A stretch of DNA of 64,000 bases from Candidatus Sumerlaea chitinivorans (GTDB lineage: Bacteria; Sumerlaeota; Sumerlaeia; Sumerlaeales; Sumerlaeaceae): positions 1,094,672 to 1,158,671 of the forward strand of contig CP030759.1 of the NCBI GenBank assembly GCA_003290465.1, in the 5' to 3' direction. How positions within the stretch are numbered: position 1 is the stretch's first letter; every line of letters begins with the position of its first letter. A model generated the notes under the pieces. That model saw only the letters and a list, made by a program, of their open reading frames with translations. It was not told the origin of the DNA and ran no database searches. Of the stretch, positions 28,788 through 34,287 are shown piece after piece. A program made the translations under genes and the position numbers.

Positions 28788-29231
28788 ATGGGTCTGGGCG
28801 TTATTGGCTTTTACTTGGTGATCATTATTTACTTCTTTGTCTGTCTCTTCCTGATTATGGTTATTCTCGCGCAGGAGGGAAAAGGTGGTGGGCTTTCCGG
28901 TCTTGGCGGTGCGAGCGCGATTGGTGAAACCTTTGGTTTTGGCGGAGCAGCCACGGCCCTACGCAAATGGACGAGAAACATCGCGATTCTTTTCATTGTC
29001 CTCACGATCATTTTGACCTACTGGGGAGAGCGAATTGCGCGCAGCCGGATTCAGCAGTTCCGGTCAGGTGGAGCGGAAGCGATGGTACCTGTGGAGACAC
29101 AGCCCATCCCGCAGCAACCCGTTCAGCCAGAAAGCGGCCAACCACAAGCGGTTCCGGGTTCGGCCAACAGTGCGGGTGAGGCCCCCGCGGGTCAACCCAG
29201 TACCCCAGCTCCCACCCAGCCAACGCAGTAG
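28788..29231 (+). CDS. secG: Preprotein translocase subunit SecG
   Basis: SecG is the small SecYEG subunit that assists protein export. The 147-residue protein has two transmembrane helices (about 6-28 and 62-80) joined by the Gly-rich loop characteristic of SecG (AQEGKGGGLSGLGGASAIGETFGFGGA). The C-terminal ~60 residues are Pro/Gln/Ala-rich and make it longer than typical SecG (75-110). AAGGA precedes the ATG by about 11 bases. The usual neighbour tpiA is not here. Confidence 0.93.
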   Translation: MGLGVIGFYLVIIIYFFVCLFLIMVILAQEGKGGGLSGLGGASAIGETFGFGGAATALRKWTRNIAILFIVLTIILTYWGERIARSRIQQFRSGGAEAMVPVETQPIPQQPVQPESGQPQAVPGSANSAGEAPAGQPSTPAPTQPTQ

Positions 29232-29624
29232 CCAGAATCGCCAAGAGACTGTTCTATCCCCTCATAACTTTTGGAAAGGTGGGAGAACCAACATCTCCAG
29301 CGGAGCAGCATCTCTGGCTCCACCTTTCCGCTTCTGAGTATGGCAAAACGCGCGAAGCTGCGGTGGGCTAAACTAAAATTAGCTAGCAAGTGAAGCTCAA
29401 TACCTTGCAATTCTTGCTGGGTATTGGACACTAGGTGGGGAATCCTTCCCACGCCCGTCGTGTCCCGCGGACGGGTTGGGCACGTCATTCTCGAGTTTCC
29501 TGTTCCCAGTTTCTGTTGCGCACAGTGAAATTCCAACAGTAGCTTTCAGATACGGAGAAGGCCATGGAAAAAACGTCTTTGGGCCGCTCTGTTGCATGCC
29601 TCTTGAGTCACTGGATACTCAGCC
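29232..29624. other. Intergenic region with several stem-loops
   Basis: No gene is supported in these 393 bases. Three inverted repeats are visible. A long one has a perfect 10-bp stem GGAAAGGTGG/CCACCTTTCC (29273-29282 with 29320-29329), extended by AG/CT past one bulged base. Two shorter adjacent ones are at 29435-29452 (GTGGG/CCCAC) and 29454-29475 (CCCGTC/GACGGG). The first could end the secG transcript, though no T-run follows. The others lie about 150 bases before the next gene. Confidence 0.4.
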
Positions 29625-29852
29625 ATGCCAAATGAGGACATTGAAATACGGATCACGAAAAGTGGCGAGATTTATGTGAAGATCGTTGGTGCGGAAGAGG
29701 CGCGCGTCCGCGATTATCGGTCGTTCCTTGAGGAGATGATTGGTCCAATCAAGTCTGAAACACAGCTTTCTACACCCCCGTGGGAAAAACCTCTTTTTCA
29801 GGCAGATTTGGATGAGCATACACGCGAGCAAGAGCAAAAACGAGGCACTTAA
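29625..29852 (+). CDS. Small acidic protein, DUF2997-like
   Basis: This 75-residue protein begins with a beta-rich stretch (IEIRITKSGEIYVKIVG) and a helix ending in LEEMIGPIK, a pattern resembling the DUF2997 family, but it lacks the usual conserved Cys. The assignment is tentative and no function is known. It ends 3 bases before the S26-like gene, so the two are probably co-translated. No clear ribosome-binding site precedes its ATG. Confidence 0.6.
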   Translation: MPNEDIEIRITKSGEIYVKIVGAEEARVRDYRSFLEEMIGPIKSETQLSTPPWEKPLFQADLDEHTREQEQKRGT

Positions 29853-29855
29853 GCC

Positions 29856-31118
29856 ATGCGTGTGTGTCCAGTATGTAGTTTTCGCAATCCCGAGACAAAC
29901 CAGCGGTGCGCAAAATGCCAAGCTCTACTCGTCGATGACGAAACTGTTTGGCAAGAAAGTCTTCGTCGTAGCCGACACGCGACGTTGTCTGCCTTAACAT
30001 ATCGAGTCGCGGGCCTTGTTCAACGAGGCTGGGCATCCCTTCCCTTCCGAAATTGGTGGGACATTCCACCGGCTGTACAGCATCGCTTCCCAGCTCTCGC
30101 TGGCTTTCTCTCGCTTATTCCCGGAGCTGGGCAGATATACAACCGGCAATACGCCAAAGCGATTCTCTTCGCCGTACTCTGGAGCACACTTGCGGCCACT
30201 GGGTGGGTCACCATCCGCGAATGGTACAGCAATTACCTTTTGTTCGGACTCTTGGGAGTGCACCTGCTGATCATTACGGACGCAGTGGCTACGGCTATCC
30301 GTGCAAACGGCCAATTCTGGAGCTTTCGCAACACAATCGCTCTGTGGTTTGCGATTCTCTTTTACGCGGGTGTGGTAATTACTGCGGCCCAGTATCTCTT
30401 ACCAGCTATCTTTGTTGTTCTTAGCACGGTCGCGCTGTCCGTGCTCGGCGCATACACTGAGTTCTCAGGTAAGCGCTTGCTCGCCATGCCGGTCGTTATC
30501 TTAGCGATCGTTGCCGTTGTCGTGGGGGCCTACGTGATCTCGCGTCCACACAGCGCACGGATTTTTGCGTTTGTTCGGCTCACCAAACCCGTGGGCGGCA
30601 GCATTTTGCGAAAAGGTGATCTTCTCTTGGTGGACTACCGTGCGTACTGGTTCGCGAGGCCATCACTGGGTGAGATTGTGCATTTTGATCCCCCCCCATT
30701 TCGGCTGCAGCACAACAAGGATGAGTATCTCGTGAACATTATGGACTACTTTCAGCGCGTGGCGGGCATGCCGGGAGATCGCATTGAGAAGCGAAACGGG
30801 ATTTTTTATCGCAATGGCAACCGCATGCCAGACGGCCTCATCCCGTGGGGAGGAGAGCGCATTCCGGACTGGACCTTCGATGTGCCAGAAAAGCATTATT
30901 TTGTCCCCGTGACGAAAATACCCGATGACGTCCTAACCAGTCTCATGGGGAGCCTCACGGGAGGCTCAGCCCAAATGCCAGAGTTGTTTGCTCCCGGCTG
31001 GCTGTTTATCGGATGGAAAGAAGCAACGATGGTACCCTCGGACCAGATCTATGGTCGAGTCCTTGCAATCGTCAATCCGCCAGAACGGCGCCGTTGGCTT
31101 TTTTCGTCAGGCGAATAA
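29856..31118 (+). CDS. Zinc-ribbon membrane protein with S26 signal-peptidase-like domain lacking the catalytic lysine
   Basis: The 420-residue protein begins with a zinc ribbon (Cys4, Cys7, Cys18, Cys21). A TM2-like motif follows (LSLIPGAGQIYNRQYAKA, about residue 90), then about six membrane helices to residue 230. Residues 240-415 resemble signal peptidase I: box B with Ser249 (VGGSILRKGDLLLVD), LGEIVHFDPP, box D (QRVAGMPGDRIE) and the final IYGRVLAIVNP. Box D normally reads KR-(V/I)-x-G-x-PGD, and the Lys is the general base (Lys145 in E. coli LepB); here it is Gln300. The Ser-to-Gln spacing of 51 fits LepB. So the protein is either an inactive relative or uses another base. It follows a small acidic protein by 3 bases. 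Confidence 0.75.
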   Translation: MRVCPVCSFRNPETNQRCAKCQALLVDDETVWQESLRRSRHATLSALTYRVAGLVQRGWASLPFRNWWDIPPAVQHRFPALAGFLSLIPGAGQIYNRQYAKAILFAVLWSTLAATGWVTIREWYSNYLLFGLLGVHLLIITDAVATAIRANGQFWSFRNTIALWFAILFYAGVVITAAQYLLPAIFVVLSTVALSVLGAYTEFSGKRLLAMPVVILAIVAVVVGAYVISRPHSARIFAFVRLTKPVGGSILRKGDLLLVDYRAYWFARPSLGEIVHFDPPPFRLQHNKDEYLVNIMDYFQRVAGMPGDRIEKRNGIFYRNGNRMPDGLIPWGGERIPDWTFDVPEKHYFVPVTKIPDDVLTSLMGSLTGGSAQMPELFAPGWLFIGWKEATMVPSDQIYGRVLAIVNPPERRRWLFSSGE

Positions 31119-31408
31119 CGCAAAGGGCTTTTTAGGGTGCAACTTTAGGGCCGCCTGAATCAAAGAAGGGAAACGCCTGCGGAGCTAAGGGAAGTCTTGC
31201 CTTCACGAACGCATTTCTCTTATGGAAGAAACGTATAGTAGGAGAGAGATAATCGTTGCTATTGTCCGGAAGTCGAAATGTTCGAAGACATTCGTAGGCG
31301 TCAACTCACCCAACGCCCAGATAGAGGGGGTCGAGGAAGTGTCTTTGACGTTTGCCGATTGCACGAATTGAAAGCGATCCCGGGCAAGTAAAGTGAGGTT
31401 TCGAAATT

Positions 31409-31855
31409 ATGCGTTGGTTCCTTCATCATCAGCAGCATGCCGCACACGGCAACCCAATCGACGACGAGTTTTCTCGGTTGTTTCATTTGTTTTTCGGCTC
31501 GCATCAGCCCAAGTTTTGTCCAACCGAACGAGCCTGGACCCCACTGACCGATATCTATGAGACCCAAGACGCCATCCATGTCCGCATGGAACTGGCGGGA
31601 GTCAAGCGAGAGGACATTGAAATCACAGCTCACGGCCACTACGTGACCATCCGGGGTCAACGTCACGAAGTTCCACAGTGTGACAAGGAGAAGTACCACC
31701 TGCTCGAAATCCAATACGGGAAATTCGAACGCGTGATTAAGCTCCCCTTCAATCTCAGCACGACCTCAATTACGGCTGAATTGCAGAATGGGTTTCTTTT
31801 GATCACCATCCCCAAGCCTTCTGAGCCGCAAGAAATCCGAATTGAGATCCAGTAA
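31409..31855 (+). CDS. Hsp20/alpha-crystallin small heat-shock protein
   Basis: A 148-residue ATP-independent holdase that binds unfolding proteins. The alpha-crystallin domain spans about residues 48-135, with ELAGVKREDIEITAHGHYVTIRGQR, the conserved helix-free core YGKFERVIKLPFNL and the LQNGFLLITIPK segment. The C-terminal tail contains an I-x-I motif (IEIQ region). The N-terminus is His/Phe-rich. It lies 29 bases upstream of lon, so both are likely co-expressed as a heat-shock unit. I see no CIRCE element in the 290 bases before it. Confidence 0.93.
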   Translation: MRWFLHHQQHAAHGNPIDDEFSRLFHLFFGSHQPKFCPTERAWTPLTDIYETQDAIHVRMELAGVKREDIEITAHGHYVTIRGQRHEVPQCDKEKYHLLEIQYGKFERVIKLPFNLSTTSITAELQNGFLLITIPKPSEPQEIRIEIQ

Positions 31856-31884
31856 CTTTATCCAAGCGAGAACCAGGACACGCC

Positions 31885-34287
31885 ATGAGCGAAACGATCA
31901 TACCCGACCAAACAGCAACTCTGGACGTTGATGGGCCAGCAATTCCAGCAGTTTTGCCTATCTTGCCGGTGGAACAGTTTGTCTTATTCCCGTCGATGGT
32001 GGCTCCGATCATCGTCGGCGACGAGAAAAGCAAGCAACTAATTGACGACGCGCTGAGAGGGAACCGTCTCGTTGGGGTTTTGACGAAGAAGCCAGAGGCC
32101 CCCAACATCGCCACCTTCGAAAACCTCTATTCCGTGGGCACAGTCGCAAAGCTTCTACGTATGCTAAAAATGCCAGACGGAACAGTCCGGTTGCTTGTTC
32201 ACGGTGTGACACGCTTTCGCGTCGTTGATGCGATTGCGACGGTACCCTACCTCCGGGCTCGCATTGAAGTCCTTAATGAGGTCAACGATCAAGAGAATCC
32301 AGAGACGATCGCGATGGTGCGAAACATCCACCGCCTTCTTGCGCGTGGGGTTGAGCTGACGTCGCTGCCCGAGGACCTTGCACTCACTGCAGCTAACATC
32401 ACAAATCCGGGGCGGCTTGCCGATTTGGTTGCCTCAAATCTTTCCCTCAAGATTCCCGAACAAATCGAGATTCTTGAACTTGTCGACGTTAAAGAGCGAC
32501 TAAAGCGCGTCCTCTTCCTCCTAACGCGCGAAATTGAGTATCTTGAATTGGGCAGCAAGATCCAGTCGCAAGTTCGGACGGAGCTTGATCGCACTCAGCG
32601 CGAATACTTCCTGCGTGAGCAACTCAAAGCTATTCGCAAAGAGCTGGGTGAGGAGGAAGGGACCTCGCGCGAGCTTGAGGAACTGGCTGAACGAATCAAG
32701 GCCAAGCAAATGCCCGACTATGCGCGGGCAGTTGCGGAGAAGGAACTCAACCGCCTAAGGATGATGCAGCCAGCAAGCGCAGAGTACACGGTCTCGCGTA
32801 CGTATCTGGAGTGGATTCTCGACCTACCGTGGTGCGAAAGCACGAAAGATAATCTTAACGTTGCGCGTGCAAAACGCATTCTCGATGCTGATCACTACGA
32901 CCTCGAAAAGGTCAAAGAGCGCATCCTCGAATACCTGAGTGTGCTCAAACTGAAAAAGAACATGAAAGGCCCTATCCTGTGCTTTGTGGGGCCGCCGGGG
33001 GTTGGTAAGACCTCGCTTGGCCGATCGATTGCGCGAGCGATGGGCCGGAAATTCTACCGCATTGCCTTGGGTGGGATGCGGGACGAGGCAGAAATTCGCG
33101 GGCACCGACGCACCTACATTGGCGCCATGCCCGGGCGCATCCTGAAGGGCCTCAAACAGGTGGGGTCGAATAATCCAGTGCTCATGCTCGACGAAATCGA
33201 CAAAATTGGGTCGGACTATCGAGGAGACCCTGCGGCTGCGCTCTTAGAGGTTCTCGATCCGGAGCAAAACAATACGTTCACCGATAACTATCTCGACATG
33301 CCGTTTGATCTCTCCAACGTCATGTTCATCACGACGGCAAACCATATGGACCCCGTGCCCGCTCCGCTTCGTGATCGCATGGAAGTGATCGAGCTCCCCG
33401 GCTATACGCTGAAGGAGAAAGTGCAGATCGCCAAGCGCTATCTTATCCCTAAGCAACTGGAGGAGAATGGAATCTCAGCAAAGCATCTCACATTTGCCGA
33501 GTCGGCCATCGTCGCAATCATCGAAAATTACACCCGTGAGGCGGGACTGCGGAATCTCGAGCGTGAAATCTCAAATATCTGCCGGAAAGTGGCGCGGCAA
33601 GTCGCAGAGAAGAAAGCAACCCGCGTGACCGTGTCCAGCCGCAACCTAAAGCAGTATCTTGGTCCCCCAAAGTATTTCAGCGAGGTTGCCACACGAATGG
33701 GTGTTCCCGGTGTGGCAATTGGTCTGGCGTGGACACCTGTGGGAGGCGAAATCCTATTTATTGAAGCTGCGATGACGCCGGGATCAGGGCGACTCACCCT
33801 AACAGGGCAGTTGGGCGAAGTGATGAAGGAAAGCGCGCAAGCGGCCTTGACTTACCTGCGCTCAAACGCCGAGCAATGGCACATCGACGACCAACTCTTT
33901 GCCCAGCGCGACATCCATGTCCACGTACCCGCTGGGGCCATACCGAAGGATGGACCGTCCGCCGGAATAACGATTTGCACAGCGCTGGCCTCGCTGCTCA
34001 CTGGACGTCTGGTGAAGGACTATCTTGCCATGACAGGCGAGATCACATTGAAGGGCAACGTGCTTCCAGTGGGAGGAATCAAAGAGAAGGTTCTTGCTGC
34101 AGCACGAGCAAAAATCCACGAGGTCATTTTGCCCGAACGTAATATGCAGGATCTGGACGAGCTCCCGGAAGACGTCCGCAAGCGAATCACGTTCCATCCA
34201 GTCAAAACGATGGACCAAGTGCTCAGTTTGGCGCTCGAGCTTAATCAGTCTACCGAAGCAGCGCCGCAGACACCAGCGGAGCAGTGA
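31885..34287 (+). CDS. lon: ATP-dependent protease Lon
   Basis: Lon degrades misfolded and regulatory proteins in the cytosol as a homohexamer. The 800-residue protein has the N-terminal LON substrate-binding domain (about 25-215), a coiled-coil segment, the AAA+ module with Walker [10 protein letters not shown] and Walker [11 protein letters not shown], and the C-terminal protease domain. The catalytic dyad is intact: Ser692 in DGPSAG and Lys735 in GGIKEK, with the same 43-residue spacing as in E. coli. It is downstream of hsp20. There is no membrane segment, so it is LonA. Confidence 0.97.

What the first reader, a model, noticed from the sequence alone, without database searches (positions are those of the whole stretch)
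29625..31118. Zinc-ribbon S26-like membrane protein without the catalytic lysine, paired with a small acidic protein
The C-terminal domain of the protein at 29856-31118 keeps signal-peptidase boxes B, C-like and D, and the nucleophile Ser249. The general-base Lys of box D is Gln300 (QRVAGMPGD in place of KR-x-x-GxPGD). An N-terminal zinc ribbon and a TM2-like multi-helix domain precede it, an unusual architecture. A 75-residue protein ends 3 bases upstream. The pair may be a non-proteolytic scaffold or a protease with a changed mechanism.
Basis: partly seen in the sequence, partly recalled or inferred. Interest (0 to 1): 0.62.

Follow-up and report, generated by a model that had tools for sequence, protein, structure and literature searches.

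The report
Dead signal-peptidase membrane protein with partner
This membrane protein has the shape of the enzyme that clips export tags off proteins but has lost every cutting residue; it is inherited together with a small partner protein, and in other bacteria it sits in a larger, apparently undescribed gene cluster with two ATP-driven motors.

Summary
The two genes exist as described, in a Candidatus Sumerlaeota genome. The Lys-to-Gln change (Gln300) is real. Across 21 Sumerlaeota homologues the Lys column is Q, E or G, never K; Ser occupies the nucleophile column in two. This is a lineage-wide pseudo-signal-peptidase, not a protease with a changed mechanism. It has a RanBP2/NZF-like Cys4 finger and three or five membrane helices. 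The small protein is a divergent DUF2997. The two co-occur in 24 of 26 genomes holding either (40 searched), even when unlinked. Outside Sumerlaeota, five genomes carry the same kind of membrane protein with a DUF2997 in a cassette of AAA+ ATPase, DUF1257 (Ycf35-like), TPR protein and usually PilT. All 25 Sumerlaeota genomes with the membrane protein keep such a DUF1257 elsewhere. Best reading: a non-proteolytic, peptide-binding membrane adaptor tied to that module, working like streptococcal SipA. The biochemical role is inferred, not shown.

The parts
29625..29852 (+). small acidic protein (75 aa), divergent DUF2997 branch; two-strand hairpin plus helix, then a low-confidence C-terminal helix
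   Evidence: own-built DUF2997 HMM E 5.6e-8; the Pfam match of this protein itself is below cut-off
29856..31118 (+). 420-aa membrane protein: Cys4 zinc finger, membrane helices, S26-like domain without catalytic residues
29865..29918 (+). RanBP2/NZF-like zinc finger, C4-x2-C7-x3-N11-x6-C18-x2-C21
   Evidence: alignment; Foldseek to RanBP2/NZF fingers (short matches, high E-values); Pfam weak
30090..30542 (+). membrane region: conserved GAGQIYNRQ motif (DUF5683/DUF6677-like) and five predicted TM helices (residues 102-228)
30591..30593 (+). codon for Val246, in the nucleophile-Ser column of box B
   Evidence: HMM-HMM alignment
30600..30602 (+). codon for Ser249, in the box-B Pro column; not the nucleophile
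30753..30755 (+). codon for Gln300, in the general-base Lys column of box D
30567..31109 (+). S26-like (signal peptidase fold) domain, predicted extracytoplasmic

Best explanation
The pair encodes a membrane-embedded pseudo-signal-peptidase and a small cytosolic DUF2997-type partner. The membrane protein has a cytosolic zinc finger, an odd number of helices and an S26 fold on the outer face of the membrane. Having lost the Ser-Lys dyad and box E, it cannot cut as a signal peptidase does. It most likely uses the S26 cleft to hold an exported polypeptide or pilin-like segment without cleaving it, and relays this through the finger and the small protein to the ATP-driven part of a module (AAA+ ATPase, DUF1257, TPR and often PilT). 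Shown by sequence: loss of catalytic residues, conserved architecture, pairing, and the shared cassette in other lineages. Inferred: topology, non-cleaving peptide binding, and coupling to the AAA+/PilT motors.
For: Catalytic columns lost in all homologues, while the genome's own two other S26 proteins keep SGSMSPTL/KR and SSSMEPTL/KR. AlphaFold2 model pLDDT 82, whose only confident full-fold PDB matches are type I signal peptidases. Three- and five-helix forms keep the parity that puts S26 outside. Pair co-occurrence 24 both / 1 / 1 / 14 neither, Fisher 9e-9; by family 8/1/1/5, p 0.011. Cassette in five genomes outside the phylum. DUF1257 of the cassette type in all 25 genomes with the membrane protein. 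PilT above the TIGR01420 cut-off. Precedent: SipA lacks Ser and Lys yet is essential for pilus assembly (PMC4049620).
Against: No binding or phenotype data. In Sumerlaeota the parts are dispersed, so coupling to AAA+/PilT there is indirect; AAA+ and TPR were not located in the window's own genome. Local contexts (SecG...Hsp20-Lon; PHP-ABC permeases) differ between families. Co-occurrence counts are not phylogenetically independent. The S26 domain is very degenerate in two cassette members (no Pfam match in L207, below cut-off in L206).
Confidence: 0.5

Rival explanations
1. It is an active protease with a changed mechanism, for example Ser249 or another residue as nucleophile with Gln/Glu300 or another base.
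For: The S26 fold is kept and Ser or Thr occurs in the nucleophile column in some homologues.
Against: Ser249 is Pro in nearly all homologues; the nucleophile column is not conserved; the Lys column is Q/E/G; box E is lost; no Ser, Thr, Cys, His or Lys is invariant in the domain, only D255 and R412 among polar residues.
Confidence: 0.04
2. The S26-like domain is a purely structural or docking domain (no peptide binding); the working parts are the zinc finger, membrane region and DUF2997 partner.
For: Relatives of the cassette in Sumerlaeaceae G002 and G004 have a zinc-finger/TM protein without S26 in the same position, so the module can work without it; the domain is degenerate in L206 and L207.
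Against: The fold and the box-D strand (FQR-x-x-G-x-PGD) are strongly kept in Sumerlaeaceae, and the domain is retained in every Sumerlaeota copy long enough to show it.
Confidence: 0.3
3. The pair belongs to Sec/quality-control work, next to SecG, Hsp20 and Lon, independent of the AAA/DUF1257 module.
For: SecG lies upstream in 4 of 7 Sumerlaeaceae loci and Hsp20-Lon downstream in 5 directly and in one more after three genes.
Against: In other families the pair sits next to sugar-type ABC permeases or elsewhere, or is split, while co-inheritance with DUF1257 persists.
Confidence: 0.13

Closest known systems
Type I signal peptidase (S26A, LepB/SpsB)
   Same: S26 fold with LxxGD and box D motifs; outward domain after membrane helices
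   Different: No nucleophile Ser, no Lys, no box E; added zinc finger and multi-helix domain
SipA/LepA of streptococcal pilus islands (PMC4049620)
   Same: S26 fold without Ser-Lys dyad (Asp/Gly there); non-enzymatic; SipA is needed for pilus assembly
   Different: SipA sits beside sortase and pilins in Gram-positives; no zinc finger, no DUF2997 partner, no AAA+/PilT cassette (own knowledge plus the paper); no direct sequence comparison was made here
DUF2997-DUF1257 (Ycf35) clusters of cyanobacteria and plastids (cluster with fed7, PMC4284462)
   Same: DUF2997 and DUF1257 genes together
   Different: Ferredoxin partner instead of the zinc-finger/pseudo-S26 protein, TPR and PilT
DUF5683/DUF6677/TM2-like membrane proteins with zinc ribbon
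   Same: GxGQxYN-type membrane motif behind a Cys4 finger
   Different: No S26-like domain

Membership tests
Type I signal peptidase (peptidase S26A) | S26 fold / Pfam PF10502 | tested here: met
   39.3 bits vs cut-off 22.9; Foldseek prob 1.00 to SpsB and LepB
Type I signal peptidase (peptidase S26A) | Nucleophile Ser in box B | tested here: not met
   Val246 in that column
Type I signal peptidase (peptidase S26A) | General-base Lys in box D | tested here: not met
   Gln300; Q/E/G in 21 of 21 homologues
Type I signal peptidase (peptidase S26A) | Box E GDNRxxSxDS | tested here: not met
   Replaced by VTKIPDD-type sequence
Type I signal peptidase (peptidase S26A) | NCBIfam TIGR02227 equivalog cut-off | tested here: not met
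   36.4 bits vs 47
ER/SipW-type S26B peptidase using His in place of Lys | His in the general-base column | tested here: not met
   Column is Q/E/G, no His
SipA-type pilus pseudo-signal-peptidase | S26 fold without the dyad | tested here: met
SipA-type pilus pseudo-signal-peptidase | Location with class-B sortase and pilin genes | tested here: inconclusive
   No such genes recognised among the translated ORFs near the pair, but no sortase-specific search was run
SipA-type pilus pseudo-signal-peptidase | Requirement for pilus assembly | not testable with these tools
   needs genetics
DUF2997 (small protein) | Pfam PF11211 gathering score | tested here: inconclusive
   Window protein 13.3 vs 24.1 bits; the G004 orthologue reaches 24.2; own DUF2997 HMM E 5.6e-8
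RanBP2/NZF zinc finger (PF00641) | C-x2-C-x3-N-x6-C-x2-C spacing | tested here: met
   Sequence and (nearly) invariant columns
RanBP2/NZF zinc finger (PF00641) | Pfam gathering score | tested here: not met
   16.1 bits vs cut-off 27; so RanBP2/NZF-like, not filed as a member

The most novel reading that the evidence does not exclude
A cross-phylum membrane machine built from a dead signal peptidase, DUF2997, DUF1257 (Ycf35-like), a TPR protein, an AAA+ ATPase and PilT, in which the dead peptidase is a substrate receptor handing exported or pilin-like polypeptides to ATP-driven motors; the cyanobacterial/plastid ycf35-DUF2997 pair would be a relative of its core.
Probability: 0.25. Interest if true: 0.85.

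Novelty: new variant of a known kind. Interest (0 to 1): 0.6.

Why it matters
Signal-peptidase folds are normally read as proteases, and a plain Pfam match would label this one a signal peptidase. Much of a phylum keeps a version with all catalytic residues gone, co-inherited with a DUF2997 protein and a DUF1257 protein. That links a pseudo-peptidase to two long-unexplained families (Ycf35/DUF1257 and DUF2997, also found in cyanobacteria) and to a PilT ATPase, giving a directly testable gene set for all of them.

Tried and rejected
Ser249 as nucleophile: rejected by alignment. Decayed pseudogene: rejected; full-length frames in nearly every homologue, in many genera. Hsp20-Lon or SecG as fixed partners: rejected as general, because contexts change between families. 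Fold search with the small protein: no significant match, low-confidence model. First genome-contig scan with the single protein found nothing; the alignment scan found full-length relatives only in Sumerlaeota, and the relatives outside came from the genome search with the N-terminal alignment. Literature searches for an inactive signal peptidase of this kind returned only SipA; DUF2997 appears in two papers of the library.

Full report
Observation. The window lies in a 3,289,105-base single-contig genome; the titles of full-length relatives place it in Candidatus Sumerlaeota. The 420-residue protein matches Peptidase_S26 above Pfam's cut-off but fails NCBI's signal peptidase I equivalog.

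The catalytic site. Aligned with 20 Sumerlaeota homologues and, by profile-profile comparison (E 2.8e-26), with active signal peptidases mostly of the same phylum, Val246 falls in the nucleophile column, Ser249 in the box-B proline column and Gln300 in the lysine column. The lysine column reads Q in 7, E in 9 and G in 5 of 21; the nucleophile column holds Ser in 2 of 21. Box E is absent. Among polar residues of the domain only D255 and R412 are invariant, so no hidden catalytic group is conserved. The genome's two other S26 proteins keep Ser and Lys, so this one is not needed as a housekeeping signal peptidase.

Architecture. AlphaFold2 with 17 sequences gave mean pLDDT 82; the best PDB matches by E-value are type I signal peptidases, and the N-terminal 22-24 residues match RanBP2/NZF fingers (short matches, not significant by E-value). 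The finger spacing C-x2-C-x3-N-x6-C-x2-C is kept. Hydropathy finds five membrane helices in the window protein and three in many shorter homologues (the simple scan misses one or more in several); the odd number and the basic N-terminal region put the finger inside and the S26 domain outside (inference).

The partner. The small protein lies directly upstream of the membrane protein in ten of the Sumerlaeota loci examined, the window included. Elsewhere it is unlinked, yet among 40 Sumerlaeota genomes both occur in 24, one alone in 2 and neither in 14 (the one genome outside the class, G039, was checked for the membrane protein). By family the split is 8/1/1/5, p 0.011. It is a divergent DUF2997: the window copy scores below Pfam's cut-off, an orthologue just passes, and an HMM built from cassette DUF2997 proteins finds it at E 5.6e-8.

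The wider module. In Sumerlaeaceae G004 and G002 a true DUF2997 lies in the order AAA+ ATPase, DUF1257, DUF2997, zinc-finger/TM protein without S26, TPR, PilT. Outside the phylum, five genomes carry a zinc-finger/TM/S26-like protein with DUF2997 and DUF1257 in such a cassette (L186, L187, L188, L206, L207). PilT is present in four of the five; in L206 the contig ends just inside the AAA+ gene, and in L207 the S26 part is recognisable only by alignment. None has Lys in the general-base column. The PilT of L188 exceeds the PilT/PilU cut-off. In Sumerlaeota a DUF1257 of the cassette type occurs in all 25 genomes with the membrane protein and in three others, often beside a TPR gene and once near the AAA+ gene; in the window's genome it is at 3185195-3185680.

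Mechanism. The sequence shows a conserved protein that cannot work as a signal peptidase, a conserved pair, and a shared gene set. SipA is the precedent: same fold, no dyad, a conserved peptide-binding cleft, essential for pilus assembly (PMC4049620). I therefore favour a non-cleaving peptide receptor linked to an ATP-driven module. Type IV pilus-dependent twitching is reported in all Sumerlaeota MAGs of PMC8092238, so a pilus-related role is possible but untested.

Limits. Co-occurrence counts are not independent of phylogeny, several genomes are incomplete, G-handle organisms are unnamed, and the literature library is open-access only, so 'undescribed' means not found there.

Noticed in passing
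L186, L187, L188, L206, L207 (genomes G167, G300, G257, G339, G311): Cassette AAA+ ATPase - DUF1257 - DUF2997 - zinc-finger/TM/dead S26 - TPR, with PilT in four of five, outside Sumerlaeota.
   Followed up: partly
L150:4572-9427 and L169:3428-8400 (genomes G004, G002): Same cassette in two Sumerlaeaceae with a zinc-finger/TM protein that lacks the S26 domain, alongside a separate pair of the window type.
   Followed up: partly
L250:9189-9683 (G000:C1:3185195-3185680): Cassette-type DUF1257 gene in the window's own genome, more than 1 Mb from the pair on a contig of 3.29 Mb; no TPR gene recognised beside it.
   Followed up: partly
L048 and L051 (genomes G029, G021): Two tandem, slightly overlapping copies of the pseudo-S26 membrane protein, with one unlinked small-protein gene found per genome.
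   Followed up: no
L043, L045, L046, L050: In two other families the pair follows a PHP-domain protein and two sugar-type ABC permeases instead of SecG.
   Followed up: no
window 28788-34287: SecG upstream and Hsp20-Lon downstream of the pair, an order kept in several Sumerlaeaceae.
   Followed up: partly
L002:1066-1968: The 300-aa active signal peptidase of the genome has a long insertion between box B and box D.
   Followed up: no
L149:2703-3152: A YlxM/p13-like HTH protein (UPF0122) lies beside the unlinked small-protein gene in genome G004.
   Followed up: no
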